From a virus, in the IMG/VR virus record IMGVR_UViG_3300049846_001717, positions 1-64,000 of that record: 64,000 bases of DNA, one strand, 5' to 3'. Below the pieces are notes generated by a model. The model was not told the origin of the DNA and ran no database searches. It saw only the letters and a list, made by a program, of their open reading frames with translations. Both the position numbers and the translations under genes were made by a program. Within the stretch, counting starts at the first letter, position 1, and every line of letters starts with the position of its first letter. This document shows, in pieces, positions 24,842-45,635 of the stretch.

Positions 24842-25194
24842 TGGATCCGGGCGGAATCGAACCGCCGTCCGAAATACCGTACTAACAGTATCTTCTCCGT
24901 GCGCAGATGGGTGTCTTATTTCGGTGTACGATGTCACACTCATCGAAGCCATCGTACACCTAGTTCATAAGGCATTCATACGATATGAACGTCTCGTATG
25001 AATTTACTCATCTATCGGTTTCCCGTTCCGTCAATTCAGTACGATGAGAGAACTGAACGAGGATTCGCATACTCTTAAGCAGCGAGAGGAAGTGCTGTGT
25101 TTGCACTTGAATTTTTGACGACAGTTACGGATGTACGTCCTTTCCGGCACGCTTCATTCTGTGTTCGTGTTTCCGTCGAAACCAGGTCGGACCC
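24842..25194 (-). ncRNA. ssrA: tmRNA (ssrA), tag peptide ANTALPLAA
   Basis: The minus-strand 5' end reads GGGTCCG then ACCTGGTTTCGACGG, the tmRNA start box. The 3' end has a T-arm (GGCGG, TTCGATT, CCGCC) and acceptor strand CGGATCC-A, which pairs over 7 bp with the 5' end. A reading frame from GCA at 25104 to TAA at 25075 encodes ANTALPLAA, the length and LAA ending of ssrA tags, preceded by an A-rich resume region. Several stable stems between the tag and the tRNA part fit pseudoknots (GTACGATG with CATCGTAC). tmRNA frees stalled ribosomes and tags the product for proteases. No CCA is encoded. It lies just after the gene ending at 25194. Confidence 0.95.
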
Positions 25195-25505
25195 TAACGT
25201 TTTACTGCAAAACTTCGATCTACCAATGCATCCAATGCGGCTACAATTGATGGTTTGGATCGATTGCTGGGATGCAACATCTTGCGTTCGTACCGCCACA
25301 CCAGTTCACAGATTTCATCCACCGTCATCCATTTACGAGAGTTGAGTGCACGGAGAATGTCACCATGTTGTTTTGCTACTTCTAGATAAATAGCGGGCTT
25401 GATGTTCGGGCGGATGGTGCCGCTCGCAGTATACACATTGAGTCTATACTGCGAGTCGGCCACTGACCTCTGTACATCGATTGTGATGTTGATTTCTGTT
25501 GTCAT
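25194..25505 (-). CDS. Hypothetical protein, possible winged-helix
   Basis: A 103-residue protein. The C-terminal half (WMTVDEICELVWRYE, SIVAALDALVDRSFAVKR) looks like a small winged-helix. SD GGAG precedes the ATG. Its stop codon TAG overlaps the first base of the tmRNA gene, so transcription into the tmRNA is likely. Confidence 0.6.
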   Translation of the reverse strand: MTTEINITIDVQRSVADSQYRLNVYTASGTIRPNIKPAIYLEVAKQHGDILRALNSRKWMTVDEICELVWRYERKMLHPSNRSKPSIVAALDALVDRSFAVKR

Positions 25506-25529
25506 ATCTGCTCCGACTATACATAGTCA

Positions 25530-26210
25530 TTACACGTACCGTACTTGGTAAATGTCAAGAATGTATGCATTTTCGGCGAACTGAATGTCCCGGTGCATAT
25601 GACCGCAGATCATCGCGGGTTTGTCCAAACGATTCCACACATCTTCCACGATGACACCGTTTGGATCCGTCCAATCAACCGGCACACCAAAATCCAACTT
25701 GGTCATGGGGTCAAAATACTTACGAATGACCCAATTCGGTGGAATGTGCGTCACCAACAAATCAACCTTGGGATTGCCCATCTTGTTCAAATTCTCGAAC
25801 AGTCGGTCCCGTTCTTCCGGTTGAATATCTTCCCGCGCGTCCCAGTGCCAGCCGTTCTTGAGTCGGTCGGCCTTATCAATAGACGAGGCGCCTCCGAGGA
25901 ACGCAACCACACGACCATCCAATTCCATCACCGTGCCACGAGGCACGTAGAACAAGTTGGGTGCGATTTCCGATACTTCTTGTAGATGATAGAAGTTTTG
26001 AAAATACTCATGATTGCCATCTACGAAATACACACGCTTCTTGAGCGGATTCTTTTGCAGAAAGACAAGATCTGATAATTTAAATCCCAAATCGCCTACT
26101 TGGATACAACTGAGATCGTTGTTTCCACCATTTACGTCGTTGACCGCGTCCACGATACCAGACAACACCCGTACATTACCGTGAATATCACCGATACCAA
26201 CCAATGCCAT
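25530..26210 (-). CDS. Calcineurin-like metallophosphoesterase
   Basis: About 226 residues from an ATG at 26210 that has a strong SD (GGAGG); a longer frame upstream lacks one. The metal motifs are all present: GDIHG, GDLG, GNHE, THIPP and GHMH. It probably hydrolyses nucleic acid or nucleotide phosphoesters. A hairpin separates it from the upstream tRNA-Ser. Confidence 0.88.
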   Translation of the reverse strand: MALVGIGDIHGNVRVLSGIVDAVNDVNGGNNDLSCIQVGDLGFKLSDLVFLQKNPLKKRVYFVDGNHEYFQNFYHLQEVSEIAPNLFYVPRGTVMELDGRVVAFLGGASSIDKADRLKNGWHWDAREDIQPEERDRLFENLNKMGNPKVDLLVTHIPPNWVIRKYFDPMTKLDFGVPVDWTDPNGVIVEDVWNRLDKPAMICGHMHRDIQFAENAYILDIYQVRYV

Positions 26211-26228
26211 ATAACCTCCAAAAAATAA

Positions 26229-26253
26229 ACCCATCGACGGGAGTGCCAATGGG
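26229..26253 (-). terminator. Weak hairpin before the metallophosphoesterase gene
   Basis: AACCCAT (26229-26235 region) pairs with ATGGGTT, followed on the minus strand by TTATTTTTT. This gives a small hairpin with a U-rich end just after tRNA-Ser and may terminate the tRNA transcript. Confidence 0.5.
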
Positions 26254-26263
26254 TTACGAGTAA

Positions 26264-26350
26264 CGGAAAGTAAGAGATTCGAACTCTTGATCCCTTTAGA
26301 GGGGACACACCGTTTTCAAGACGGGCTCCTAGACCAACCGGACACTTTCC
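26264..26350 (-). tRNA. tRNA-Ser(UGA)
   Basis: Standard class-II fold with a long variable arm. The anticodon loop CTTGAAA gives UGA. The acceptor stem has 7 bp and N73 is G. No CCA is encoded. Confidence 0.92.
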
Positions 26351-26431
26351 AAGTATATGTAACCTTCATTCTACTTTGTCATTCTACATGCAAGATTGCT
26401 CCATTTGGGTAATCACCGTAATCTACTCTAT

Positions 26432-27124
26432 TCAACCTTTGTTGGCAAGTAGCTTGTCCAACCGCCACCAGTACGTTTGATATTCGCCCTTAATTTGCAA
26501 CTTCTGCTTGAACAACGGATAGTCGGCGGCGTACTTATCGTTCTTTTCGCCTTCCGTTGCGTTGGCCAATCGATCACAGAGCTTTACGAATACAGCTTCA
26601 CGATCGGTATTAATTCGATCATAATAGCTGGTATTGGATTCCTTCGGTCGTTTGGTTACAAGGTCAACGATGTGTGCCACTTTTGGACCAAATTGTTTTT
26701 CCAATTGTTCCTTAGTGATGGATGTATCTTCCAACACATCATGCAACAATGCGGCCTGTCGTGACGCTGTTGTGCCGCCCTGTGCTAGTTGAAATACTTT
26801 GAGCAAATGATATTTGTATGGCTTATTTCCATACATCTGATCGCCATGGGCTCTGAGCGCAAAGTTGAGAGCCGACCCATAGTTTTGCTGTAGGTGACTG
26901 TCCGGAGCTTTCCCGGCTCGTCCTGATCTACCCGATGATCTATGTTGTGGATGATCGGGGTCCGTTTCTTTATCAAAGATATACTCTAACTTCCCATCCA
27001 CCGTTCGGGCCACGATCTCACCAGATGAATTGGCCCAATAACCCCACCCCTTACTGATCAAGCCACGCTTTTTAGCCTCGTCGCTGGCAGTAGATTCATT
27101 GAATATTTCAAGTAGTAGGATCAT
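26432..27124 (-). CDS. RelA/SpoT-type HD hydrolase (possible ppGpp hydrolase)
   Basis: A 230-residue protein. Residues about 85-200 match the hydrolase half of RelA/SpoT or MESH1: FALRAHGDQMYGNKPYKYHL, AALLHDVLEDT (the HDxxED motif), YDRINTDREAVFVKLCDRLANAT. No synthetase domain is seen. It may lower host (p)ppGpp during infection. The N-terminal 75 residues hold a separate domain (GWGYWANSSGEIVARTVDG). It lies between two serine tRNAs. Confidence 0.78.
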   Translation of the reverse strand: MILLLEIFNESTASDEAKKRGLISKGWGYWANSSGEIVARTVDGKLEYIFDKETDPDHPQHRSSGRSGRAGKAPDSHLQQNYGSALNFALRAHGDQMYGNKPYKYHLLKVFQLAQGGTTASRQAALLHDVLEDTSITKEQLEKQFGPKVAHIVDLVTKRPKESNTSYYDRINTDREAVFVKLCDRLANATEGEKNDKYAADYPLFKQKLQIKGEYQTYWWRLDKLLANKG

Positions 27125-27145
27125 GCGATTCTCTATTCGATTAAA

Positions 27146-27228
27146 CGGAATGCCAGGGAATCGAACCCTGTTGTCCTTGCGGACGTACCTCGGTTCCAGC
27201 GAGGCTCCTAGCCAATCGGTTACATTCC
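27146..27228 (-). tRNA. tRNA-Ser(GGA)
   Basis: Class-II fold with a long variable arm. Loop CTGGAAC gives GGA. The acceptor is GGAATGT with GCATTCC. A CTATTTATAG motif lies about 106 nt upstream. No CCA is encoded. Confidence 0.92.
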
Positions 27229-27333
27229 AACGCGTTCACCTTTACCCATGACCATCGAGGTCATTTCACCCCATTCTATTCATGCACGCCCAACTAACGG
27301 TCCTAAGTTCGAATGGTATGGAACGCAAGGTAT

Positions 27334-27343
27334 CTATAAATAG
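27334..27343 (-). promoter_or_regulatory. CTATTTATAG motif upstream of tRNA-Ser(GGA)
   Basis: Same motif as the copies at 6412, 18646 and 56850, here between the MazG-like gene and tRNA-Ser. It may start a tRNA transcript. The assignment rests only on recurrence. Confidence 0.3.
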
Positions 27344-27344
27344 G

Positions 27345-27632
27345 TTACTTGGATGCTTTCGCCGCTCGCAAATCCATATCCTTCTGGATCATGGAGGCAA
27401 GGGCGAAAATACAGCCAACCGCAACGTCCATCAGTTCGTTGCCTGTTTCGATGGGGTCGTTCTGCTTGACAGCATCCATCAGTTCGAAATATTCTTCGGT
27501 GATGATGCCAAGTGATTCGTGGCTACTGATATACGCGCCGGTGCCATGCTTTTCGATCTTCTGGCCTAGTGCAACGGTCGCGGCTTCAATCGCCTTGAGT
27601 AGAGCGTCATCAGATACTTTCGGTCGTTCCAT
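27345..27632 (-). CDS. MazG-like nucleotide pyrophosphohydrolase
   Basis: 95 residues from ATG at 27632, which has SD GAGG; a longer frame exists but is not needed. TEEYFELMDAV followed by NELMDVAVGCIFAL is the ExxE...ExxD pattern of the MazG family. Such enzymes clear (p)ppGpp-related or modified nucleotides. Together with the RelA/SpoT-type HD hydrolase nearby this suggests control of host nucleotide alarm signals. Confidence 0.75.
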   Translation of the reverse strand: MERPKVSDDALLKAIEAATVALGQKIEKHGTGAYISSHESLGIITEEYFELMDAVKQNDPIETGNELMDVAVGCIFALASMIQKDMDLRAAKASK

Positions 27633-28062
27633 GTGTAACCTCGGGTGTGGGCCAGACATACGGGAGGTCGTCTGGCATGTTTTTGAAATACTTGGAGTAG
27701 TGCTTGAAATCCTTTCGGAGCAGATTGGACTTGTGTGAACGATGTAGCGGCTTTCGGGGGCCGATCCACGGCGGGAAGCCAGTGAAATTCCGAGACACTC
27801 GAGCTTGGAAATACGGCAACAGGCTGTCGTTGTAGCCGCGGCGCCGCCATTCCAAACAGATATACATGCCGTACAGTGCCAACGCACCTTCGTAACCGGT
27901 CCACATCTTGACGGCAGGGTGGTTGCGCCAGCCCTTGGTCTGCGTCTCGTTCAGTAGGATTTGTAGGATCTGCTTGGCTTCAACACGTTGCTTGCCAAGC
28001 CGGCGGTAGTCGAGGACACGGGCCGTGCGCTCGAAATCGGGATATGGAAGGAATGTCTGCAT
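27610..28062 (-). CDS. MSMEG_6728-like protein
   Basis: A 150-residue protein beginning MQTFLPYPDFERTARVLDYR, then LGKQRVEAKQIL and WRNHPAVKMW. This is the conserved start of a family of bacterial and phage proteins annotated as pyrimidine-dimer-glycosylase-like or MSMEG_6728. The activity is not proven. It overlaps the MazG gene by 23 nt. Confidence 0.75.
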   Translation of the reverse strand: MQTFLPYPDFERTARVLDYRRLGKQRVEAKQILQILLNETQTKGWRNHPAVKMWTGYEGALALYGMYICLEWRRRGYNDSLLPYFQARVSRNFTGFPPWIGPRKPLHRSHKSNLLRKDFKHYSKYFKNMPDDLPYVWPTPEVTHGTTESI

Positions 28063-28136
28063 ACCCGTAAACTAACCTTTCGGCACGCGCCTGGCAACCC
28101 TCCGGCACGCGCCAGGCTTGCGTCTGGCCGTCTAAA

Positions 28137-28209
28137 AACCCCCGGTGGGACTCGAACCCACATCTCCTGTTACGGTGGCCCGTTTAGGAAACGGGACCGA
28201 TACGGGGGG
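28137..28209 (-). tRNA. tRNA-Arg(CCU)-like, D-arm replaced
   Basis: A standard T-arm (GTGGG, TTCGAGT, CCCAC) and a 5-bp anticodon arm with loop TTCCTAA (CCU) are clear, and the acceptor pairs over 6 of 7 bp. Only TATCGGT links acceptor and anticodon arm, too short for a D-arm. CGGT pairs with ACCG beyond the arm, so a stem encloses the anticodon arm. The two Ile(GAU) genes share this plan. Confidence 0.7.
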
Positions 28210-28216
28210 CAACTGT

Positions 28217-28429
28217 TTATCGAGGGTCGGTGTTGTTTTTGAACGCGTGGATTGCGATCTCGGCCTCCCACAACTTGTTTTCTACGTGTTCATCGTATGG
28301 ATATCCGTTTTGCTTCTTCGATTCATCCAACCAATATCGATACGAGTCGATTAGAACTCGTAGGATAGCTTTGGACTGAGGCGATTTAACCGACGCCTCT
28401 ATTGCGTCCAGTTCGTCATAACTGATCAT
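28217..28429 (-). CDS. Small hypothetical protein
   Basis: A 70-residue helical protein (MISYDELDAIEASVKSPQSK...). Its ATG overlaps the stop of the upstream amber-containing gene (ATGA), so translation is coupled to it. No family is recognised. Confidence 0.6.
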   Translation of the reverse strand: MISYDELDAIEASVKSPQSKAILRVLIDSYRYWLDESKKQNGYPYDEHVENKLWEAEIAIHAFKNNTDPR

Positions 28430-28659
28430 GTGATACGTGCCTCAGACTTGCCGTTGACGGTGATGATTTCGAGCGTGCCCTTGAACTTGATACTACCCTT
28501 CGTGTGAGGGTTATCCGGCGTTTCCTTCGTAGAAAACCCGACCTGTGAATCTACATGCCACACGTAATGAGTTTGGCCCTTGTGTTTGATGACCCACGGA
28601 GGAATGCCCTACGGATCAGTGATATGAGCCTTGTTGAAATGAAAGACGATGGTATCCAT
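28426..28659 (-). CDS. Small protein gene with in-frame amber (TAG) codon
   Basis: From ATG at 28659 the frame reads MDTIVFHFNKAHITDP, then TAG at 28609-28611, then stays open for 60 more codons (GIPPWVIKHKGQTHYVWHVD...) to TGA at 28426. That stop overlaps the ATG of the next gene. The downstream half has no other start codon. A phage tRNA with anticodon CUA lies 0.9 kb upstream on the same strand, so the codon could be read through. A decayed gene is the plain alternative. Confidence 0.65.
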
Positions 28660-28660
28660 G

Positions 28661-28840
28661 TTACTTAGTGTCCAATTTATTAGCCAATGTTTTTAACTTT
28701 CTAAGAGCAGATTTATACTTCGTCACAGCAAGTTTCCATTCAGGGGATGAATATGTTCCACGTCGATAGGCATTTCCCCATTCATCAAGAATATTTTCCA
28801 TTTCATTCATTATAACATCATTTTTGTTAAGATTTTTCAT
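28661..28840 (-). CDS. Small helical hypothetical protein
   Basis: 59 residues from the ATG at 28840, which overlaps the TAA of the upstream gene (TAATG) and follows SD GAGGAG. It is Lys-rich and helical (SALRKLKTLANKLDTK). Its base composition is more AT-rich than the structural genes, as with the next two genes. Confidence 0.6.
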   Translation of the reverse strand: MKNLNKNDVIMNEMENILDEWGNAYRRGTYSSPEWKLAVTKYKSALRKLKTLANKLDTK

Positions 28841-29061
28841 TACCACTCCTCGTATGAGGTAACATCCAATGTTTCATTGGTTAATGCATCATGAATTTTA
28901 ACAATGGTTCCCAAGCCAGTAGGCGTAAAACTATAAGTAAATCTACCACCAGCGGCACCGGTGCGGCGCGATATCTTCTTTTCTTTAATTATCGTATCCA
29001 AAAATTCTACCCACTTTTCAATTTTTGGAGCGGCATCAAGTGGTATATTAAATAGAGTCAT
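28840..29061 (-). CDS. Small hypothetical protein
   Basis: A 73-residue protein (MTLFNIPLDAAPKIEKWVEF...) with a Gly/Arg patch SRRTGAAGGRFTYSF. It overlaps the Pth2-like gene by 4 nt. No family is recognised. Confidence 0.6.
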   Translation of the reverse strand: MTLFNIPLDAAPKIEKWVEFLDTIIKEKKISRRTGAAGGRFTYSFTPTGLGTIVKIHDALTNETLDVTSYEEW

Positions 29062-29417
29062 TTCACAAGTGATAGATGTTTAAGTGCTTTTGCCTCTTCT
29101 CGGGTCAATGGACCGATACCAAGTGCAGTCATAATAGGGTTGCCATCAAAGTGAGGAGGCATAACATGGCCAGAATCAATGATGAGACTGTGTGGCCACC
29201 CATTGGCCTTCGCCAGTTTGACCAAGGCACGTATATCGGTGACAGAGCCTTCTAGAGTGACCTTCGTACCCAATCCACCCTTCTGATAGAGCCTGGCACG
29301 CCTGGGATTGAGTTGAACACACTCCAAATACGAATTAAGGAAAGCGTGACCCGCTTGAGCGGCCAGCTTTCCTGTCGGCATGTGTAAATCTTTACGAACT
29401 ATGGCATAGAGCTTCAT
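29058..29417 (-). CDS. Peptidyl-tRNA hydrolase, Pth2 type
   Basis: A 119-residue protein: KLYAIVRKDLHMPTGKLAAQ, AGHAFLNSY, TKVTLEG, LIIDSGHV and TALGIGPLTREEAKAL. The last two are the Pth2 fingerprint (usually TVLGIGP near the end). Pth2 frees tRNA from dropped peptides and is typical of archaea and eukaryotes but also occurs in phages and some bacteria. It fits the phage tRNA and tmRNA equipment around it. Confidence 0.88.
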   Translation of the reverse strand: MKLYAIVRKDLHMPTGKLAAQAGHAFLNSYLECVQLNPRRARLYQKGGLGTKVTLEGSVTDIRALVKLAKANGWPHSLIIDSGHVMPPHFDGNPIMTALGIGPLTREEAKALKHLSLVK

Positions 29418-29442
29418 GTTGACTTCATCTTCCTAGAACATA

Positions 29443-29529
29443 TTATTTGGTCTTTTTGTTATGGGTTTTAGCGTGTTTTAACGCTTGTTTCATGGACTTC
29501 ATGAGTTCTTTAAATAGTTTCTTTTTCAT
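29443..29529 (-). CDS. Short Lys-rich peptide
   Basis: A 28-residue frame (MKKKLFKELMKSMKQALKHA...) ending TAA. It is strongly basic and helical, suited to binding RNA. It starts 2 nt before the suppressor tRNA gene ends and precedes the Pth2 gene, which supports but does not prove translation. Confidence 0.5.
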   Translation of the reverse strand: MKKKLFKELMKSMKQALKHAKTHNKKTK

Positions 29530-29530
29530 A

Positions 29531-29602
29531 AGCTCGTGGCGAGGCTTGAACTCGCTTCTTTCGTTTTAGAGACGAAGGCACCGGCCGATATACCACACGA
29601 GC
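29531..29602 (-). tRNA. Amber suppressor tRNA, anticodon CUA
   Basis: All four arms fold: acceptor GCTCGTG/CACGAGC, D-arm, anticodon stem TTCGT/ACGAA with the 7-nt loop CTCTAAA, short variable loop and T-arm GCGAG/CTCGC. U33 is kept and positions 34-36 read CUA, pairing with UAG. N73 is U. The first 20 bases resemble the neighbouring tRNA-Val(GAC). The amino acid it carries cannot be told. Confidence 0.9.
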
Positions 29603-29618
29603 GTTTTCAAAATAATAG

Positions 29619-29691
29619 TGCTCACGGAAAGGATCGAACTTTCTGTCTCTACTATGTCAAAGTAGCGTGTTAGCCGGTACACCACGCGAGC
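29619..29691 (-). tRNA. tRNA-Val(GAC)
   Basis: Standard class-I fold with anticodon stem CTACT/AGTAG and loop TTGACAT. No CCA is encoded. It shares its acceptor and D-region pattern with the suppressor tRNA downstream. Confidence 0.9.
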
Positions 29692-29771
29692 GATCGAGAG
29701 TTCACGAAATTTAACGTTCTTGGTACTCACAACTTTCTTTACGAACGTATAATCTGTGCACAGATTATAAG

Positions 29772-29858
29772 AGGATCGGACAGGATTCGAACCTGTGATT
29801 AAGTCTTTCGACTATATGGTTTTGCAGACCATTGCGTTGGCCACTTCGCTACCGATCC
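29772..29858 (-). tRNA. tRNA-Cys(GCA) with long variable arm
   Basis: Anticodon loop CTGCAAA gives GCA. The variable region is AGTC-GAAA-GACT, a class-II arm with a GNRA loop, unlike the usual short variable loop of tRNA-Cys. Acceptor and T-arm are standard. A long arm is a SerRS recognition feature, so charging with Ser or Cys is open. Confidence 0.85.
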
Positions 29859-29863
29859 AAAAG

Positions 29864-29956
29864 AGCGATTTCCTGAGTCGAACAGGTCTTCGTACCTGGA
29901 GGGGTACGCGTGCTGATGGATCATCTTGCGACAACCCGCCGTTACACTAAAACCGC
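29864..29956 (-). tRNA. tRNA-Trp(CCA)-like with D-region hairpin insert
   Basis: The acceptor GCGGTTT/AAATCGC and T-loop TTCGACT are present, though only four T-stem pairs form. Between the D-loop start (GTGTAACGG) and D-stem end (GCAC) lies an insert with a GCAA-loop hairpin (TTGTC-GCAA-GATGA). The anticodon stem CGTAC/GTACG has an 8-nt loop CCCTCCAG, or a 6-nt loop if extended. CCA is the best anticodon reading. A normal tRNA-Trp exists at 44270. Confidence 0.6.
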
Positions 29957-30096
29957 AAATTGGCGCAAAGGGTGGAATTGTACATCCACTACAGAATTGA
30001 ATCCCCTTGCATATTACTGGCGGCAGGCGAAGGATCTACCCCTTCATACATAGTCAATGCTAGCCCGCCAAACTGATTTTCACGAGGTTGTTACAA
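29957..30096 (-). other. Structured spacer between tRNAs, unassigned
   Basis: TTGGCG near 30072 can pair with CGCCAA near 29958, and hairpins GAAGG/CCTTC and GTGGA/TCCAC lie within. No canonical T-arm or anticodon loop is found. It looks tRNA-sized but cannot be assigned. Confidence 0.3.
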
Positions 30097-30170
30097 TAGC
30101 GGAGGTTGGATTTGAACCAACGTCCTTCCGGTTATGAGCCGGACGCGCTGCCGGGCTGCGCCACTCCGCG
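30097..30170 (-). tRNA. Initiator-type tRNA-fMet(CAU)
   Basis: The sequence closely follows bacterial initiator tRNA: CGCGGAG start, D-arm GCGCAGCCCGGCAGCGCG, loop CTCATAA, T-loop TTCAAAT. Positions 1 and 72 are C and U, a mismatch as in initiators. The anticodon stem ends in two G:C pairs, not the usual three. No CCA is encoded. Confidence 0.85.
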
Positions 30171-30219
30171 TCAATGTTACTTTAACTGTCGAACTTTGAT
30201 CTCATACGTCCCTGTGGGG

Positions 30220-30555
30220 GTTGGATGCCAATAGCCAGGATTCTGTATAATGACAATCATTTGACTCAGTCCTCTTGCGAGGACCGCCCCACGTTTATAG
30301 TGAGGTGCTCTCAACCCGATACCTTTGGTCAGACGGACCCGTATCTGCTCGAGATTGCAGCGCCTATCCTGTCGCCCGTTTCATCCACCGCGTTATCGTG
30401 GCTCGTTTCTGTTGCCGTGACTCCATTTCGGAAAATACGAATTTCTCCATAAGATTCCTTATAGGGGAGCAGCTTCCACTCTAGGCTGTCTTGTGCTGTC
30501 CTGAACTTCCTCAACGTACAATCTAGTGTACGCCGCGATTGTCTAGGCATCCAAC
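30220..30555 (-). ncRNA. rnpB: RNase P RNA (M1-like)
   Basis: The ends pair over 10 bp (GTTGGATGCC with GGCATCCAAC, P1). GACAATC pairs with GATTGTC (P2), and CAGGA with TCCTG (P4). Conserved boxes are recognisable: GAGGAAGTTCAGG (CR-I), GGCAACAGAAACGA (CR-III), GATGAAACGG, CTCGAGCAGA (CR-IV) and CAAATGATTGTC...ACAGAATCCTGGCTA (CR-V). The P4 pairs differ from E. coli in a compensated way. It is about 336 nt, a normal size. RNase P makes tRNA 5' ends; the gene sits inside the tRNA array. The protein subunit was not found in this window. Confidence 0.93.
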
Positions 30556-39914: not shown

Positions 39915-40056
39915 CCGCGGGCGTGTTCTGCCATTGAACTATATGTGTACGAGAAGCTGGGCACGGACTGGCACTAAGTATTCCATATTATTCCACACCG
40001 CGTGGCACCGTCTTCAAACTACTCATACGAGGAATTGAACCTCGATCTCACCCTCA
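39915..40056 (-). tRNA. Putative circularly permuted tRNA
   Basis: In transcript order a 3' half comes first (40056-40020): GGGTG, variable AGAT, T-arm CGAGG/CCTCG with TTCAATT, acceptor TATGAGT, A73. After 71 nt the 5' half follows (39948-39915): ACACATA, TA, D-arm GTTC/GAAC, A, CGCCC. Swapped back, the acceptor pairs 6 of 7 and the anticodon stem CGCCC/GGGTG pairs fully. If the split is inside the loop it would read GCGG+TGA, anticodon GGU with C33. Neither half has a partner in normal order. Confidence 0.5.
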
Positions 40057-40129
40057 CGCTAACGGTCAGATTCGAACTGACGGCATCCTCATTACAAGTG
40101 AGGTGCATTGGCCTCTATGCTACGTTAGC
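40057..40129 (-). tRNA. tRNA-Thr(UGU)
   Basis: Stem CCTCA/TGAGG, loop CTTGTAA, anticodon UGU. Acceptor GCTAACG/CGTTAGC with G73. Its 3' end directly abuts the 3' half of the putative permuted tRNA. Confidence 0.9.
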
Positions 40130-40132
40130 AAG

Positions 40133-40208
40133 TCGGCCCGACTGGAGTTGAACCAGTGTGCACCGTCTAACCTTTCAACCGCTTATCAGGCGGAGGGTAT
40201 ACGGGCCG
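40133..40208 (-). tRNA. tRNA-Ile(GAU)-like, D-arm replaced, second copy
   Basis: Acceptor CGGCCCG/CGGGCCG, T-loop TTCAACT, anticodon arm CCGC/GCGG with loop CTGATAA (GAU). TATACCC precedes and GAAAGGTTAG follows the arm, so ACC/GGT form the enclosing stem. The middle 30 nt align with the copy at 39549. Confidence 0.7.
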
Positions 40209-40355
40209 GTAGCCGCCTTTTACTGTGGGCCTTCCCACACCGGCTCATGGCCGGAGGTACTCTACGGTTGCCTAATTGGTTGAATGTGGCCAGGTCACTG
40301 ATACGTAGGCACAGCCCTTTCGGGCATCAATACGCACTTCCTCACTGCACATTCA
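40209..40355. other. Intergenic, unassigned
   Basis: 147 nt with a CCGGC/GCCGG hairpin and no supported gene or tRNA arm on either strand. Confidence 0.35.
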
Positions 40356-40429
40356 TGGACACCACGGGAATCGAACCCGTCACATCGTCATTGCGAATGA
40401 CAATCGCCACCCTTGGTACATTGGCGCCC
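40356..40429 (-). tRNA. tRNA-Ala(CGC)
   Basis: Stem TGTCA/TGACG (one G:U), loop TTCGCAA, anticodon CGC. Acceptor GGGCGCC/GGTGTCC includes two G:U pairs. No CCA is encoded. Confidence 0.85.
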
Positions 40430-40499
40430 GAGCCCGCAACCGGCGATGTCCCGGCGAGTTGACCTCCCTTCAACTCTTTCATGCGGCGGATTATTTCAA

Positions 40500-40621
40500 C
40501 GGCGATGGCAGGATTCAAACCTGCATTCGTGTAACTCAAAGCGCTTTGAGAAAGACCATACGGCCACCATGCATAGCAACCGAACGTTCGAACCACGTCT
40601 TATCAGTTAGATGACACCGCC
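40500..40621 (-). tRNA. tRNA-like gene with long insert, isotype unclear
   Basis: The acceptor GGCGGTG/CATCGCC and T-arm GCAGG/CCTGC with loop TTTGAAT are sound. After a D-like segment about 45 nt are inserted. The candidate anticodon arm CTCAA/TTGAG has a 6-nt loop AGCGCT, which does not give a sure anticodon. At 122 nt it is the longest tRNA-like gene here. Confidence 0.5.
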
Positions 40622-40624
40622 AAA

Positions 40625-40695
40625 TGGACCGAGTGGGAATCGAACCCACGAGTGCGCCATGCCATGGCGCCAGTTTCCCGTTAGCTTACCGGCCC
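40625..40695 (-). tRNA. tRNA-Ala(GGC)
   Basis: Stem GCGCC/GGCGC, loop ATGGCAT, anticodon GGC. Acceptor GGGCCGG/TCGGTCC with G:U pairs. No CCA is encoded. Confidence 0.88.
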
Positions 40696-40715
40696 GAACA
40701 ATGCTTCTAATTTCA

Positions 40716-40786
40716 TGGACCCGGGGAGAATCGAACTCCCATTATCTCGGTGCAAGCGAGATGTCCTCCCATTAAACGACGGGCCC
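40716..40786 (-). tRNA. tRNA-Ala(UGC)
   Basis: Stem TCTCG/CGAGA, loop CTTGCAC, anticodon UGC. Standard arms. With CGC and GGC this completes an Ala set. No CCA is encoded. Confidence 0.9.
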
Positions 40787-40893
40787 AAATATCTAAACAA
40801 ACTGGACTGCCTTGTGGAACACCAGTCCGCCCTCCATGTTATTTTTCTCGACTTTCATCGGCCACCTATTGATGGGGCAATCCATTTAGACAA

Positions 40894-40968
40894 CGCACCG
40901 TAGAGGAATCGAACCTCTCTATCACTGTTTAACAGACAGTCGTAATCTACCAGACATACCAACGGTGC
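40894..40968 (-). tRNA. tRNA-Asn(GUU)
   Basis: Stem ACTGT/ACAGT, loop CTGTTAA, anticodon GUU, standard short variable loop. Acceptor GCACCGT/ACGGTGC with G73. Confidence 0.9.
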
Positions 40969-40995
40969 ATAATTCATTACATTTTCTACGGTTAA

Positions 40996-41076
40996 ATCAC
41001 CGGGTGGGAATTGAACCCACGTAGGCTTGCGCCACTGATTAACAGTCAGTTGCCTGAACCATTAGGCTACCGGTGA
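40996..41076 (-). tRNA. tRNA-Asn(GUU) with long variable arm
   Basis: Stem ACTGA/TCAGT, loop CTGTTAA, anticodon GUU. The variable region GGC-GCAA-GCC-TAC forms a hairpin, unlike the class-I copy at 40894. Acceptor TCACCGG/CCGGTGA. No CCA is encoded. Confidence 0.8.
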
Positions 41077-41378
41077 GTAACTACCTCTTGACCCCATTAA
41101 ACGATTCGGTTCTAAACCGAGGGAACTCTTGCGAGAAGAAGTACAGATCGTGTGTCGTGTGTAAATGGTGGACCCTGGGATTTCTCAATCCCACAAGTAA
41201 CGTAACCTCGGGACACGACTCCCATTACGGTGCTTGACATGAAACATTCTTGGAGCCCTTAATTCATGTGTCGTGCGACAGTGGAGGCCCGTGTTCAACC
41301 TACTTCAAGGCACGACCCTTGATACAGTGATTGACTCGGTCTTGTAAAATCTTCTTAGGACTCTACACACAGGCCATA
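41077..41378 (-). ncRNA. Structured non-coding stretch between tRNA-Asn and tRNA-Gln
   Basis: About 300 nt with several stems, including TCGGTT/AACCGA and GGGATT/AATCCC, and repeats of CACGACACA. No supported gene. Function unknown. Confidence 0.35.
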
Positions 41379-41451
41379 TAACCGCACTCGGATTCGAACC
41401 GAGATTCAGAGGGTCAAAGCCTCTTGTCCTAAACCGTTGGACGATGCGGCA
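41379..41451 (-). tRNA. tRNA-Gln(UUG), second copy
   Basis: Stem AGAGG/CCTCT, loop CTTTGAC, anticodon UUG. U1:U72 mismatch opens the acceptor end, as GlnRS prefers weak first pairs. Only 1 nt separates it from the CUG gene. Confidence 0.88.
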
Positions 41452-41452
41452 G

Positions 41453-41525
41453 TTGCTCTTCTAGGGATCGAACCTAGAGTTTCCTGGGTCAGAGCCAGGC
41501 GTGTTGCCAGTTACACTAAAGAGCA
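41453..41525 (-). tRNA. tRNA-Gln(CUG)
   Basis: Stem CCTGG/CCAGG, loop CTCTGAC, anticodon CUG. Acceptor TGCTCTT/AAGAGCA. The TAG stop of an HNH gene overlaps its 5' end by about 10 nt. Confidence 0.9.
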
Positions 41526-41848
41526 AAATGTTCTTTTCTATGACAGTTGGAACATAGTACAATACATTTTTCAACTTCTTGTAAAATTCTTGTCTTACCC
41601 CACGATCCCGCAGAAACCATTGATCCGATGTTACCGTGTTTAATGTTTGGATCTGTATGATGAAAATCTAGACATGCCGGATGTGATTCGGGGCATCGTT
41701 CACATTTCAATGTAGACTTGAATTGTTTCCACCATTCTTGCATTTCCTTACGACGGGTCTGTTTTCTTTGCAAGTACGAATCTTTATTGTTCAGATAATG
41801 TTGTTTGTTATACTGATCTTTCTGTTTTTTGGACCACTTATTTGACAT
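41516..41848 (-). CDS. HNH endonuclease, free-standing
   Basis: 110 residues from ATG at 41848, which has SD TGGAGAG; upstream codons belong to a leader. Zinc and HNH signatures are CERCPESHPACLDFHHTDP and CIVLCSNCHRKEH. The N-terminus is Lys/Gln-rich (KWSKKQKDQYNKQHYLNNKD). It is AT-rich compared with the structural genes and runs into tRNA-Gln(CUG), the usual context of a homing endonuclease in a tRNA array. Confidence 0.8.
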   Translation of the reverse strand: MSNKWSKKQKDQYNKQHYLNNKDSYLQRKQTRRKEMQEWWKQFKSTLKCERCPESHPACLDFHHTDPNIKHGNIGSMVSAGSWGKTRILQEVEKCIVLCSNCHRKEHFAL

Positions 41849-41915
41849 AATACTCTCCAATTTTGAGAGGTTGTTATGTATAAGTAGTCTGACCCAAACA
41901 GTTTCAGTCAGATAA

Positions 41916-42101
41916 TTACAACTCACTACATGGGATACAGAATGGTGCTGCGACCTGACGTTTCTTTTCTTCATCGAATCCAACGTCAATGAATTCGATT
42001 TTGTCTTCCGGGATGAAATCCGAACAGTTGACGCAAATCCACGAAATCTGTGATTTACCGTTTTCGATGACCTGCTTCACATTGCGTTTACGAACCAACA
42101 T
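41916..42101 (-). CDS. Small zinc-binding hypothetical protein
   Basis: 61 residues (MLVRKRNVKQVIENGKSQIS...), with CVNCSDF and PFCIPC as two CxxC pairs. SD AAAGG precedes the ATG. It is probably a small RNA- or protein-binding zinc ribbon. Confidence 0.65.
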   Translation of the reverse strand: MLVRKRNVKQVIENGKSQISWICVNCSDFIPEDKIEFIDVGFDEEKKRQVAAPFCIPCSEL

Positions 42102-42125
42102 ACGACCTTTCTACGTTAAAGTTGA

Positions 42126-42201
42126 TACCAGTGATGGGTGCCGACCCCATTTCAATTCCGCTTATGAGGCGGACGCCGATGCCGACCGGCTTCCCACTGG
42201 C
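42126..42201 (-). tRNA. tRNA-Met/Ile(CAU) with GUC-type T-loop
   Basis: Stem TCCGC/GCGGA, loop CTCATAA, anticodon CAU. T-stem ATGGG/CCCAT with loop GTCGGCA. Acceptor GCCAGTG/CACTGGT. Whether it is elongator Met or lysidine-modified Ile cannot be told. Confidence 0.75.
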
Positions 42202-42238
42202 GTAATGCTATTCCACCCAGGGTATTGCAGAGTAACAG

Positions 42239-42318
42239 TGGTGTGGGAGGGATTCGAACCCACAGGCCGAAGCGCCGGTTTTACAGACCGGTGTTAATTC
42301 CAACATAACTTCCACACC
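42239..42318 (-). tRNA. tRNA-Tyr(GUA)
   Basis: Class-II fold, stem CCGGT/ACCGG, loop CTGTAAA, anticodon GUA. The long variable arm fits bacterial Tyr. A single G34C change would give the loop of the amber suppressor at 29531, but the bodies differ. Confidence 0.9.
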
Positions 42319-42748
42319 ATAGATATGTGAGTGCAGTCTCGTTCACCAGTTCCCTGCACTTTCGTTTCACACGTTACGTCACTACAAAGAGTGATGGATT
42401 TTGTTTTCTCACGTTCTCAGAGGAGTATCAGTCCTCTGAGTGCTAAGACATATGACACAACCTACTCTCTAGAATTCCTTTGTGCCACTTCCGGTTCCAT
42501 CAACCGGTCGTCTTGTGTGTTGAATTACGTGGTGATGATCCCTCGTTACGAATCGCACGTAACATTGCAATTTAGATGAGTCGCCACCGTCAATCAACTA
42601 GTATGTACGCTGAAAGTGGCCAGCATTTATTTGGTCTGCACATTTAAGACTCTCGCCCAAACTACTTCCCGGCCTTTGCCGCCTTACGGGTATCTCCGGT
42701 TTTCGCCTCATCACCTAGTCATTGCCCAGGTATACTACGTAATTCAAG
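42319..42748 (-). ncRNA. Structured non-coding stretch with an anticodon-like hairpin
   Basis: 430 nt without a gene. The hairpin CTCAGAGGA/TCCTCTGAG (9 bp) has loop CTGATAC, exactly the loop of the tRNA-Ile(GAU) gene at 39549. Other stems lie around it. A large RNA, a tRNA mimic or a remnant are all possible. Confidence 0.4.
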
Positions 42749-42821
42749 GGTGATATACCGGTATCGATCCGGTACTCGCGGAGTCACAGTCCACTGTGCA
42801 GGCCACTACACTAATATCACC
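42749..42821 (-). tRNA. tRNA-His(GUG)
   Basis: G-1 opposite C73 and a perfect acceptor GTGATAT/ATATCAC are the His hallmarks. Stem GTGGA/TCCGC, loop CTGTGAC, anticodon GUG. T-loop ATCGATA. Confidence 0.92.
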
Positions 42822-42932
42822 ATAGGTGCAACCCCTAGGCCATCAGTTATTCACCGGCTGGGATGACTCCGCGCAGTGCCGGTCCAGATGCTCTCGTTGT
42901 CAGGGTTGCTGGAGAGCCCACGCTATGCTACA
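42822..42932. other. Intergenic structured spacer
   Basis: GCTCTC/GAGAGC and ACCGGC/GCCGGT hairpins, no gene. It may be part of the tRNA-His leader or processing region. Confidence 0.35.
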
Positions 42933-43006
42933 TGCTTCGGCTGAGATTCGAACTCAGAAGACTTCCGATTAAGAGTCGGATGCTTTACCTGATAAGCTTA
43001 CGAAGC
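42933..43006 (-). tRNA. tRNA-Lys(CUU)
   Basis: Stem TCCGA/TCGGA, loop CTCTTAA, anticodon CUU. Acceptor GCTTCGT/CCGAAGC. No CCA is encoded. Confidence 0.9.
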
Positions 43007-43045
43007 GTAGGAAGGTTGTTTACGGTCTAACCTACAAAGACCACA

Positions 43046-43120
43046 TGCCTCGGGTGGGACTCGAACCCACAACTTACCGCTTAAAAGGCGGCTACTCTGC
43101 GCTATTGAGTTACCAAGGCG
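43046..43120 (-). tRNA. tRNA-Lys(UUU)
   Basis: Stem CCGC/GCGG with loop CTTTTAA, anticodon UUU. Standard T-loop TTCGAGT. No CCA is encoded. Confidence 0.9.
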
Positions 43121-43124
43121 TTAT

Positions 43125-43195
43125 GCTTCCGGCCGATCCTGACACGGCAACGTGCTGTTTAAAAGACAGCTGTGATTCCTTTTCACCACGGAAGC
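43125..43195 (-). tRNA. tRNA-Lys(UUU) with GUC-type T-loop
   Basis: Stem GCTGT/ACAGC, loop CTTTTAA, anticodon UUU. The T-arm GCCGT/TCGGC has loop GTCAGGA and a U:U pair. It lies 4 nt from the normal Lys(UUU) gene. It shares the GUC T-loop with genes at 39682 and 42126. Confidence 0.75.
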
Positions 43196-43401
43196 GCTGG
43201 TGCCTCAATGTCGCGGTCACGTTGAGGCGCCGTGAGTGTGCAATATTGCATTTCTGGGACCGCTCACACACGGTCGTGCAATACTGTCCGCTGCTTCTTC
43301 GATTAACCAGTTTTGATGCCCGAAATAAATCCGACGTTCGTTATAGGAACGTTCGGGAAGCAGACTATCGACCTGAACAGAAGTCGGCTCGTACTGCCTA
43401 A
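43196..43401. other. Hairpin-rich spacer
   Basis: GCCTCAA/TTGAGGC and CGTTC/GAACG hairpins. A long minus frame crosses it (ending 43217) but begins inside tRNA-Arg and lacks a start, so no gene is called. Confidence 0.35.
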
Positions 43402-43473
43402 TGCCCACGGAAAGATTCGAACTTTCTCGGAGAGTTTCGTAGACTCTAATGCTATCCGTTACATCACGAGGGC
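43402..43473 (-). tRNA. tRNA-Arg(ACG)
   Basis: Stem AGAGT/ACTCT, loop CTACGAA, anticodon ACG; A34 is normally changed to inosine by TadA. Acceptor GCCCTCG/CGTGGGC has one U:U. No CCA is encoded. Confidence 0.88.
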
Positions 43474-43555
43474 GTTGACGGTGTTTAGTGTGGTTCGCCG
43501 TCACCACTCAATATACAACATCTGTCTTCAGTTGTCAAGTAGCAAACTTCAAAAG

Positions 43556-43641
43556 CGGAAACGATAGGAATTGAACCTACAAGTGCTTATTAGGCACCGA
43601 CTGTTTTCGAGACAGCTTATCGCACCAATGATCGCGTTTCC
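43556..43641 (-). tRNA. tRNA-Ser(CGA)
   Basis: Class-II fold, stem GCTGT/ACAGT, loop CTCGAAA, anticodon CGA. Acceptor GGAAACG/CGTTTCC with G73. Confidence 0.9.
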
Positions 43642-43755
43642 AGATTGCAGCAACAAGCACCAACTTTGTATGCATCCGGTGTGCATACCCTTTAATTCGG
43701 CTCCCGTCAGGGGTTGGTTAAAGCTCGACGCCCTCCCCATTCTTGTTACTACAAA

Positions 43756-43842
43756 CGGAAAGTAAGGGATTCGAACCCTTTCCCCGAATTAACGGGGCTG
43801 GTTTAGCAAACCAGTGTAGCGCACCGACTCTACCGACTTTCC
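43756..43842 (-). tRNA. tRNA-Ser(GCU)
   Basis: Class-II fold, stem CTGGT/ACCAG, loop TTGCTAA, anticodon GCU. Variable arm CCCCG/CGGGG is strong. With UGA, GGA and CGA this gives four Ser tRNAs. Confidence 0.92.
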
Positions 43843-43894
43843 TTCGCCCGAAGAGGGACTTTCACCCTCTCTTTCCGTTCGGGCAGGACGGAAG

Positions 43895-44059
43895 TTACTT
43901 TGTAGCTACCCGTTCTGCGTGCTGACACGCTTTACGATATGCCTCTACGGCTCGTTTGATTCGTTTTACATCTTCCGGCTTTGCAAACTCGTCGATCATC
44001 GTATAGATTTTCTTACGCGCCACAACTGCCTTATGTACTGCCTGCTCTCCGGCGGTCAT
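43895..44059 (-). CDS. Small basic helical protein
   Basis: 54 residues (MTAGEQAVHKAVVARKKIYT...) with SD GAGG. Basic and helical, suited to RNA binding. A 28-codon frame just upstream (44056-44142, MKNTAPSSGDTRRLMTATRS...) overlaps its start as ATGA and may be a leader. Confidence 0.65.
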   Translation of the reverse strand: MTAGEQAVHKAVVARKKIYTMIDEFAKPEDVKRIKRAVEAYRKACQHAERVATK

Positions 44060-44158
44060 ACAACCTCATTAAGTTGGAGTCCAGAACGAGTTGCGGTCAT
44101 GAGCCTTCTCGTATCTCCGCTCGATGGAGCGGTATTCTTCATTTAAACTATCCGGACA

Positions 44159-44230
44159 TACCCTCGGAGGGAATTGAACCCCCTATACTTGGTTCGAAGC
44201 CAAGCGTGATATCCGGTCCACTGCGAGGGC
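44159..44230 (-). tRNA. tRNA-Arg(UCG)
   Basis: Stem CTTGG/CCAAG, loop CTTCGAA, anticodon UCG. Acceptor GCCCTCG/CGAGGGT. With ACG, UCU and the CCU-like gene this gives four Arg tRNAs. Confidence 0.9.
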
Positions 44231-44269
44231 GTAGTTTGTTACACTTTGATCAAAACGTTCACCTACAAC

Positions 44270-44342
44270 ATGTCCGACAGGATTCGAACCTGCAACAACT
44301 CGTTTTGGAGGCGAGCACCATTAGCCAGTTTGGTTCCGGACA
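44270..44342 (-). tRNA. tRNA-Trp(CCA)
   Basis: Stem CTCGC/ACGAG (one C:A), loop CTCCAAA, anticodon CCA. Acceptor TGTCCGG/TCGGACA. This is the regular Trp gene; the gene at 29864 has the same anticodon letters in an odd loop. Confidence 0.85.
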
Positions 44343-44579
44343 TATACTACGATGGGAGGCGGGCTGGGCACGGGCCGTCAATCGATGCGTCCATCGACGG
44401 TGAGCATTCGCGAAAATACTCACTTCCCGATATTAGTTTGTAACGTACAACACCGTCCCGACACTCCACTAACTTTGAGACGCGTCCACACTCGGACCAC
44501 AAGGCATAGCTGGGGTCGCATCGCCTTGACGGGGAGTAGGCACCCCGTTCTCGTCTCCACTGCGGATCTTACGATCCAG
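44343..44579. other. Structured spacer
   Basis: 237 nt with CCGTC/GACGG and GACGGGG/CCCCGTT stems and no supported gene. Unassigned. Confidence 0.35.
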
Positions 44580-44655
44580 AGCCGCTAACCGGATTCGAAC
44601 CGGTACTTCTACATTGGCAATGTAGCGTGCTCAATCCGTTGAACACTATAACGAC
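44580..44655 (-). tRNA. tRNA-Gly(GCC), second copy
   Basis: Stem CTACA/TGTAG, loop TTGCCAA, anticodon GCC. Acceptor GTCGTTA/TAGCGGC with two G:U pairs. Confidence 0.88.
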
Positions 44656-44662
44656 TTACTTA

Positions 44663-44734
44663 CGGTGTATGCGGGTATCGATCCCGCTTCCTTCCCGTGA
44701 CAGGGGAAGATCCTAGCCAGTAGACGAATACACC
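44663..44734 (-). tRNA. tRNA-Asp(GUC)
   Basis: Stem TTCCC/GGGAA, loop CTGTCAC, anticodon GUC. T-loop ATCGATA. It lies directly downstream of a terminator, so it probably begins a transcript. Confidence 0.92.
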
Positions 44735-44741
44735 AACGTAT

Positions 44742-44793
44742 CAAAAAACAAGAAACCCCATTCACGGTTTTCAAGGCCGGTGAAGGGGGTTTC
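44742..44793 (-). terminator. Rho-independent terminator
   Basis: A stem with 13 of 14 pairs (GAAACCCC...CTTCAC with GTGAAT...GGGGTTTC), then TTGTTTTTTG on the minus strand. It ends the transcript of the 40-residue gene. Confidence 0.85.
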
Positions 44794-44817
44794 GGGAAAA
44801 CTTCGGGCGGTTACTGC

Positions 44818-44940
44818 TTAGTTTGCGCCGCCACCCATCCCATCCCCTTCGATTGTATCTTCAATACTGCGCGTACCGAAGGCTTGCTTCGATGCGGGCA
44901 TTGTATTGACTTTATACTGCCAAGTGGTATGGGTAAACAT
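44818..44940 (-). CDS. Small Gly-rich hypothetical protein
   Basis: 40 residues (MFTHTTWQYKVNTMPASKQA...) ending GMGGGAN. SD AGGA precedes. No family is recognised. It has its own terminator. Confidence 0.55.
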   Translation of the reverse strand: MFTHTTWQYKVNTMPASKQAFGTRSIEDTIEGDGMGGGAN

Positions 44941-45067
44941 AGGGAAATCCTAGGAGTTGGGTGATTCTGGACTATACATAGTGAGCACGTTCAGAAAACG
45001 GTCACTTTCTTCATATGGTGAAGTCTAACACATCGGCCGCCGTTTGGCAAGCGTCAGTTTTAACTAG

Positions 45068-45140
45068 TTGGCCCGGAGGGATTTGAACCCCCGCACTTTC
45101 CATTATGAGTGGACCGCTCTGACCGCTGAGCTACGGGCCA
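45068..45140 (-). tRNA. tRNA-Met(CAU), elongator type
   Basis: D-arm GTAGCTCAGCGGTCAGAGC, stem TCCA/TGGA, loop CTCATAA. The acceptor first pair is U:A, unlike the initiator gene. It is the most standard of the four CAU tRNAs. Confidence 0.85.
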
Positions 45141-45143
45141 ATA

Positions 45144-45506
45144 TCACCCGATTGGAATATTCGGGGATTTGGATTTGAGTACGTCAATGACACGATCAAA
45201 GCCCCATCGACCGAACATGATGCCACAACATAGGAACAACAACCAGAACATCGGCCAGGTCCAGACCTCATCCATATTACGAACAGACCGAACGATGCCG
45301 GTAAACAACACCGTACATGAAATGCCAAATGCCATCATTTTCGTCGCACTGGGCCGCCCATCAGTTCCGAGCAGGTCCGCGAGGGCCAAGATTTGACGCC
45401 ATCGGGCGTAGATCCATCGAAACACCGGACCGCCACGACTATATGGTCGTTGTACGGAAGGTACTTCAATGGTCTGTTGTCCAACTGGTCGATAGGTCAC
45501 GTTCAA
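45144..45506 (-). CDS. Membrane protein, two helices
   Basis: A 120-residue protein with membrane helices near residues 57-72 (MMAFGISCTVLFTGIV) and 84-99 (WPMFWLLFLCCGIMF). The N-terminus is basic. It could be a holin-like or envelope protein. It lies 3 nt from tRNA-Met. Confidence 0.65.
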   Translation of the reverse strand: MNVTYRPVGQQTIEVPSVQRPYSRGGPVFRWIYARWRQILALADLLGTDGRPSATKMMAFGISCTVLFTGIVRSVRNMDEVWTWPMFWLLFLCCGIMFGRWGFDRVIDVLKSKSPNIPIG

Positions 45507-45544
45507 CTCCCGTGTGGGGAATGTAACCGACTATGACCGTTTTA

Positions 45545-45635
45545 TACTCCCGGTGGGACTCGAACCCACATATTGCGTATCTCAGACGCTGACCGTATCA
45601 TAAGTACGGGGGCTTAACCATTAACCGACAGGAGC
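45545..45635 (-). tRNA. tRNA-Ile(UAU)-anticodon, long variable arm
   Basis: Stem CCGTA/TACGG, loop CTTATGA, anticodon UAU. A variable arm of about 23 nt contains GCGT/ACGC, a class-II plan not expected for Ile. Acceptor GCTCCTG/CGGGAGT. It is the first tRNA after GroEL. Confidence 0.8.

What the first reader, a model, noticed from the sequence alone, without database searches (positions are those of the whole stretch)
24842..45635. A phage tRNA-production and translation-rescue module
Seen directly: some 58 tRNA or tRNA-like genes covering all 20 amino acids, an initiator tRNA, an amber suppressor tRNA, tmRNA, RNase P RNA, Pth2 and a release factor, plus a CCA-adding enzyme at 1767. None of the folded tRNAs encodes CCA, so the CCA enzyme and RNase P RNA would be used on these very tRNAs. 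Phage tRNA arrays and single rescue genes are known, but such a full set in one genome looks exceptional. That the parts form one pathway is inference.
Basis: partly seen in the sequence, partly recalled or inferred. Interest (0 to 1): 0.92.

Follow-up and report, generated by a model that had tools for sequence, protein, structure and literature searches.

The report
Phage tRNA array with RNase P
A large phage carries about 50 transfer-RNA genes together with its own tRNA-processing ribozyme RNA and genes for finishing tRNAs, rescuing ribosomes and ending translation, and its termination-factor gene can only be read by a ribosome that slips at an internal stop codon, a trick shared in varied form by dozens of other phages.

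Summary
The window (part of a 98-kb virus record) holds about 50 tRNA genes for all 20 amino acids, an amber-suppressor tRNA, tmRNA, RNase P RNA, Pth2, a release factor and a CCA-adding enzyme. Two things go beyond the finding. (1) RNase P RNA is not a one-off: full-length class A RNase P RNA occurs in 50 of 50 further IMG/VR records chosen from a pattern scan, many with dense tRNA arrays. None of the 50 has 16S rRNA and none of 60 records has the RnpA protein, so the RNA would need a host protein. (2) The release factor is an RF1-type protein without domain 1. Its gene has an in-frame UGA inside an RF2-type +1 frameshift site (GAGGU-AGU-CUU-UGA-C). Of 47 clusters of viral relatives, 42 also need recoding: 41 at UGA, by this frameshift or by readthrough, and one at UAG. 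Full-length RF1 relatives are intact. I found no report of either point in the library searched. That the parts form one pathway, and that the UGA senses host RF2, remain inference.

The parts
1767..3365 (-). CCA-adding tRNA nucleotidyltransferase
   Evidence: PF01743 2.4e-20, PF12627 3.2e-16; best NCBIfam model TIGR02692 actinobacterial CCA enzyme, 268 bits, below its cut-off of 439
24839..25194 (-). tmRNA, tag ANTALPLAA
   Evidence: ARAGORN; RF00023 120.2 bits, full length
26263..45635 (-). tRNA array, about 50 tRNA genes, all 20 amino acids
   Evidence: ARAGORN 46 plus four found only by Rfam
29058..29417 (-). Pth2-type peptidyl-tRNA hydrolase
   Evidence: PF01981 1.6e-17 over residues 1-117
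29531..29602 (-). amber-suppressor tRNA, anticodon CUA
   Evidence: ARAGORN; RF00005 48.7 bits
30097..30170 (-). tRNA-Met, initiator-like (1-72 unpaired)
   Evidence: RF00005 62.6 bits; sequence
30217..30554 (-). RNase P RNA, bacterial class A
   Evidence: RF00010 72.8 bits, model 1-367 of 367; folding z -3.1
30921..31383 (-). GOLLD RNA with a tRNA-like gene (anticodon AUU, 31245-31318) in it
   Evidence: RF02032 172.3 bits; tRNA by ARAGORN
36528..37212 (-). RF1-type release factor without domain 1, 227 aa after +1 frameshift
   Evidence: frame-corrected protein matches PRK00591 RF1 at 1.4e-54 from model position 106
37059..37073 (-). frameshift site: SD-like GAGGT (37073-37069), AGT spacer, slippery CTT-T, stop TGA (37062-37060), C
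   Evidence: sequence; same layout in relatives

Best explanation
This is a translation-support locus of a large tailed phage. The phage makes nearly a complete second set of tRNAs during infection. Its own RNase P RNA joins the host RnpA protein (none is encoded) to trim 5' ends, and its own CCA enzyme finishes 3' ends that lack encoded CCA. Pth2 and tmRNA recover stalled or dropped peptidyl-tRNA and ribosomes. An RF1-type release factor without domain 1 adds termination at UAA and UAG. That factor is made only when a ribosome pauses at an internal UGA and slips +1 at CUU-U (here) or reads the UGA as a sense codon, probably Trp (in relatives). UGA is the stop read by host RF2, so the phage factor should rise when RF2 is overloaded; by taking over UAA stops it would free RF2 for UGA, which closes a negative feedback loop. 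Shown by sequence: identity of the parts, absence of RnpA, need for recoding, recurrence. Inferred: expression, use on these tRNAs, codon specificity, the feedback logic.
For: Parts. RNase P RNA full length in 50/50 chosen phage records (37 above cut-off), 16S in 0/50, RnpA in 0/60, terminase in several. Recoding. Viral relatives: 42 of 47 clusters need recoding; full-length RF1 relatives 0 of 8. Tree: recoded versus intact 3 changes, frameshift versus readthrough 9. Base after a readthrough UGA is A or C in 45 of 46 sites, never U. UGA is an ordinary stop in sampled phages. Readthrough relative folds as ribosome-bound RF1, TM 0.86. PPT and GGQ kept.
Against: No expression data. The window's RNase P RNA scores below Rfam's gathering threshold. 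The RF1-type PxT motif predicts no reading of UGA, so the internal UGA cannot give simple autoregulation and the feedback needs an indirect route through shared UAA. Each element also occurs without the others. SmpB is absent in 15 of 16 records tested, including this one. Five viral relatives are intact. The record is a linear fragment without a detected terminase.
Confidence: 0.68

Rival explanations
1. The RF1-like factor is a ribosome-rescue factor (PrfH- or ArfB-like, acting on stalled or damaged ribosomes), not a stop-codon termination factor; the UGA site couples its synthesis to termination failure.
For: It lacks domain 1, like PrfH, and sits with tmRNA and Pth2, other rescue parts.
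Against: RF1 models score 185 bits against 67 for PrfH and 33 for ArfB; the stop-reading PPT motif and neighbouring Gln are invariant or nearly so; fold matches RF1 best.
Confidence: 0.17
2. The parts are independent acquisitions held together by selection on the tRNA array as a replacement for tRNAs cut by host defence or degraded after takeover; there is no joint maturation and rescue pathway.
For: The elements are separable: many phage records have RNase P RNA without RF, tmRNA or CCA enzyme, and megaphages have the RF without RNase P RNA. Phage tRNAs that evade tRNA-cutting defences are reported (PMC10264068, abstract).
Against: Co-occurrence of RNase P RNA, recoded RF, tmRNA and CCA enzyme in the window record, in G037 and in G030/G055.
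Confidence: 0.3
3. The phage RNase P RNA does not process tRNAs; it titrates host RnpA or otherwise blocks host RNase P.
For: No RnpA is encoded; the window copy is divergent (72.8 bits).
Against: Many phage copies score 200-308 bits and keep the catalytic core; they lie among tRNAs that need processing.
Confidence: 0.1
4. The in-frame UGA is an artefact: sequencing error, pseudogene, or a phage genetic code in which UGA means Trp.
For: Other phages with reassigned stop codons exist (own knowledge); readthrough sites lie where RF1 has Trp.
Against: Same stop, in a restricted set of positions, in 42 of 47 clusters, with CTT before every viral frameshift stop; standard code gives normal coding density with many UGA-ended genes; the same genes hold 79 UGG codons; full-length RF1 relatives are intact.
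Confidence: 0.03

Closest known systems
Translation gene sets of huge phages (Al-Shayeb et al. 2020, PMC7162821)
   Same: Many tRNAs, CCA enzyme, release factors, tmRNA and SmpB are reported there.
   Different: RNase P RNA is not mentioned in that main text, nor is stop-codon recoding of the release-factor gene; four of five phages of 595-735 kb in the phage collection carry in-frame UGAs in theirs.
RF2 (prfB) programmed +1 frameshift (Prince et al. 2025, PMC12421855)
   Same: SD-like purine run, three bases, CUU-U, UGA, often C.
   Different: Here the protein is RF1-type without domain 1. That paper found no conserved frameshift in prfA. Many relatives replace the shift by UGA readthrough.
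Release factor of a giant virus of amoeba, with readthrough and frameshift (cited in Atkins et al. 2016, PMC5009743)
   Same: A viral release-factor gene that needs stop-codon recoding.
   Different: A virus of a eukaryote; the bacterial counterpart with in-frame readthrough was stated to be unknown.
GOLLD RNA (PMC12286853)
   Same: Phage-encoded, near tRNA islands, with a tRNA in the linker.
   Different: Ordinary new member; only 7 of 60 records have one.
Bacterial RNase P RNA, class A
   Same: Full-length match with conserved core.
   Different: Encoded by phages within tRNA arrays without RnpA; many copies, including this one, are divergent.

Membership tests
Bacterial RNase P RNA class A (RF00010) | Full-length covariance match above the curated cut-off | tested here: inconclusive
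   Window copy full length at 72.8 bits, below cut-off 100, E about 1e-20; 37 of 50 phage relatives are above it
Bacterial RNase P RNA class A (RF00010) | Catalysis on pre-tRNA with RnpA | not testable with these tools
   Needs biochemistry; no RnpA encoded
tmRNA | tRNA-like and mRNA-like parts with a tag reading frame | tested here: met
   120 bits full length; tag ANTALPLAA
GOLLD | Covariance match above cut-off 150 | tested here: met
   172.3 bits
Release factor RF1 (prfA) | PxT stop-reading motif and GGQ catalytic motif | tested here: met
   PPT and GGQ in the alignment
Release factor RF1 (prfA) | Domain 1 and score above the RF1 equivalog cut-off | tested here: not met
   Match starts at model position 106; 185 bits against 400; so it is RF1-type, not a canonical prfA
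PrfH | Best match to the PrfH model above its cut-off | tested here: not met
   67.5 bits against 166.7
RF2-type programmed frameshift | SD-like run three bases before CUU-U and an in-frame UGA | tested here: met
   GAGGT AGT CTT TGA C at 37073-37059
RF2-type programmed frameshift | Product terminates at UGA, giving direct autoregulation | not testable with these tools
   The RF1-type motif predicts it does not
CCA-adding enzyme | Nucleotidyltransferase head plus RNA-binding domain over Pfam cut-offs | tested here: met
   PF01743 73.6 bits, PF12627 59.3 bits
Pth2 | PTH2 domain over Pfam cut-off | tested here: met
   64.2 bits against 23; below the NCBIfam equivalog cut-offs

The most novel reading that the evidence does not exclude
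Phages carry a distinct class of domain-1-less RF1 whose synthesis almost always depends on recoding an internal UGA, by +1 frameshift or by readthrough, the mode switching repeatedly while the UGA is kept. The gene thus senses host RF2 capacity and sets termination during infection. Alongside it, such phages run their own RNase P RNA in a tRNA maturation line that borrows only host proteins they lack.
Probability: 0.5. Interest if true: 0.93.

Novelty: new variant of a known kind. Interest (0 to 1): 0.86.

Why it matters
RNase P RNA as a recurrent phage gene appears unreported in the library searched and widens what viruses bring to translation. The recoded RF1 family supplies a case that a review of recoding said was unknown in bacterial release factors (in-frame stop readthrough), and extends RF2-type frameshift control to RF1-type proteins. 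It makes an open question testable: why phages encode release factors, and whether the host's UGA termination capacity sets their dose. It also warns that standard gene callers truncate these genes.

Tried and rejected
(1) That L15 of the phage RNase P RNA is tuned to tRNAs without CCA: by a rough search, GGU seems absent in many phage copies whether or not the tRNAs encode CCA, so no claim is made. (2) Genome-wide UGA recoding: rejected. (3) An opal-suppressor tRNA behind the readthrough: none among 1206 tRNAs in the loci held. (4) RNase P hits as host contamination: rejected for the 50 chosen records by absence of 16S rRNA and RnpA and by terminase in several; the other pattern hits, mostly with few or no tRNAs and a canonical core, look bacterial and were left out. 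(5) A Microcystis phage record with a partial hit is probably contaminated with bacterial DNA, judged by its neighbours. (6) A scan for relatives of the AAA/BCS1-like gene found none. (8) RNase P RNA in five phages of 595-735 kb: none found. (9) Matches to the tmRNA model below its cut-off are tRNAs and were ignored.
Full report
What is there. The window is part of a 98,055-base linear virus record. A 644-aa protein at 13977-15911 matches baseplate wedge proteins, so this is most likely a contractile-tailed phage; the terminase model tried did not match in the record. ARAGORN finds 46 tRNAs and a tmRNA on the minus strand between 24.8 and 45.6 kb; Rfam adds four tRNAs. All 20 amino acids are represented, with tRNA(CUA) at 29531. 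By locating positions 74-76 from the T-loop, 41 of 42 measurable tRNAs lack encoded CCA; the exception is the tRNA-like gene inside GOLLD. The CCA enzyme (1767-3365) is most like the actinobacterial type, though below that model's cut-off.

RNase P RNA. RF00010 matches 30217-30554 over its full length with 72.8 bits, below the gathering score but with E about 1e-20; the stretch folds better than 100 of 100 shuffles. To ask whether this is a freak I scanned IMG/VR for a core pattern drawn from this copy, the copy in L010 and the canonical sequence. There were 82 hits, many with dense tRNA arrays. In 50 chosen records RF00010 matched full length in all, above the curated cut-off in 37. None has 16S rRNA, and none of 60 records has the RnpA protein although bacterial controls ring. 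Terminase was found in long members such as G021, G036, G037, G042 and G046. So RNase P RNA is a recurrent phage gene that must borrow a host protein or act alone. In L010 it ends a few tens of bases before the release-factor gene. The records are contigs, so co-occurrence counts are lower bounds, and absence says little.

The release factor. The obvious ORF (36528-37022) holds only the C-terminal part of a release factor. Upstream, in another frame, lies the start of domain 2 (MKYLVEIRPGEGG) followed by an in-frame UGA in the context GAGGT-AGT-CTT-TGA-C. A +1 slip at CUU-U restores a 227-aa protein that matches RF1 at E 1.4e-54 from model position 106, that is, without domain 1; PrfH scores 67 bits and ArfB 33. 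Its PPT and GGQ motifs are those of RF1.

Relatives. Five viral relatives from a first scan all had a UGA at an equivalent place: two with CTT-TGA, three with UGA in frame 0. A profile scan then gave 337 relatives in viral contigs (best 80 fetched) and 73 in genome contigs. A frame-aware search classed 105 viral loci, some of them repeats of one record: 81 with one UGA read through, 3 with two, 1 with UAG, 15 with a CTT-TGA +1 frameshift, 5 intact. At 80% identity 42 of 47 clusters need recoding. Loci from the genome collection, mostly Myxococcota and other proteobacterial records, include 29 CTT-TGA and 10 CTT-TAG frameshifts and 11 UGA readthroughs. Of 19 intact genome loci, 8 are full-length RF1 with domain 1 and 11 are domain-1-less without a stop, most from Roizmanbacteria. 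On a 97-row tree, recoded versus intact changes at least 3 times and frameshift versus readthrough at least 9 (a quick tree with many weak branches). Four of five phages of 595-735 kb in the phage collection also have one or two in-frame UGAs in this gene.

Is UGA simply recoded in these phages? No. In 20-kb samples the standard code gives coding densities of 0.66-0.96 with many UGA-ended genes, and the samples from the largest phages lose nothing under the standard code. The readthrough genes hold 79 UGG beside 40 UGA codons. The base after the UGA is A in 30, C in 15, G in 1 and never U among 43 cluster representatives; +4U is the context that reduces readthrough (PMC5289835, abstract). No tRNA with a UCA anticodon was seen among 1206. 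The readthrough relative L107 folds with mean pLDDT 88 and matches ribosome-bound RF1 at TM 0.86.

How it may work. Domains 2 to 4 carry stop reading and catalysis (established for RF1), so a domain-1-less factor could terminate at UAA and UAG. With an RF1 motif it should not read UGA. The internal UGA would then be read by host RF2, and production would rise when UGA termination is slow. Because RF1-type factors and RF2 share UAA, extra RF1 activity would relieve RF2, which gives feedback through the UAA load. This step is inference. The genome-collection members with CUU-UAG could be autoregulated directly.

Known and new. Phage tRNA arrays, CCA enzyme, release factors, tmRNA and SmpB are known (PMC7162821). 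RNase P RNA is not mentioned in that paper's main text, and in megaphages described by Lui et al. [quoted passage not shown] Library searches found no report of phage RNase P RNA. The RF2 frameshift is classic, but Prince et al. 2025 found none in prfA, and Atkins et al. 2016 state that an RF2 gene with in-frame UGA readthrough was not known, citing only a giant virus of amoeba for a release factor with readthrough. The library holds open-licence papers only, so novelty is stated within that limit.

One pathway? G037 (369 kb, with terminase) and the look-alike pair G030/G055 carry RNase P RNA, recoded RF, full-length tmRNA and CCA enzyme, as the window does, which favours a selected set. But each element also occurs without the others, and SmpB was found in only one of 16 records tested. 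The joint pathway remains inference.

Noticed in passing
window 26432-27124 (-): HD-domain protein like the (p)ppGpp hydrolase part of RelA/SpoT, beside the tmRNA; it could lift a stringent response and so also bear on translation.
   Followed up: no
window 34608-35990 (-): AAA ATPase resembling mitochondrial BCS1 (AAA, BCS1 lid and weak BCS1_N matches) inside the tRNA array; no viral relative found.
   Followed up: partly
window 45708-47327 (-): Complete GroEL; no GroES was recognised among the small ORFs tested beside it.
   Followed up: partly
window 40356-40451 (-): Odd tRNA with long variable arm that ARAGORN can only read with a four-base anticodon ACCA.
   Followed up: no
window 31245-31318; L134 13267-13339: The tRNA-like gene inside GOLLD has anticodon AUU here and in the 360-kb phage G036; here it is the only one with encoded CCA.
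   Followed up: partly
window 29058-29602; L004, L006, L007: pth2 and a tRNA(CUA) gene are close neighbours in the window and in three of four viral pth2 relatives; in the fourth, L005, tmRNA is the neighbour.
   Followed up: partly
L159, L162, L163, L177, L179, L181, L189, L191, L206, L218: Bacterial-collection relatives of the RF use CTT-TAG instead of CTT-TGA; for an RF1-type factor that would be direct autoregulation.
   Followed up: partly
L188, L192, L196, L197, L200, L202, L204, L205, L208, L209, L216: Domain-1-less RF1 without any internal stop, mostly in Roizmanbacteria.
   Followed up: partly
L134 9353-10280: Phage G036 (360 kb) has two tRNA(CUA) and one tRNA(UUA) close together, near RNase P RNA and GOLLD.
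   Followed up: no
G014:C1:178405-178860, G057:C1:454428-454883, G041:C1:203310-203741: CCA-enzyme head domain inside open frames of about 1500 aa, far longer than a usual CCA enzyme.
   Followed up: no
window 27610-28062 (-): Pyrimidine-dimer DNA glycosylase (PF03013), a DNA repair gene between the tRNAs.
   Followed up: no
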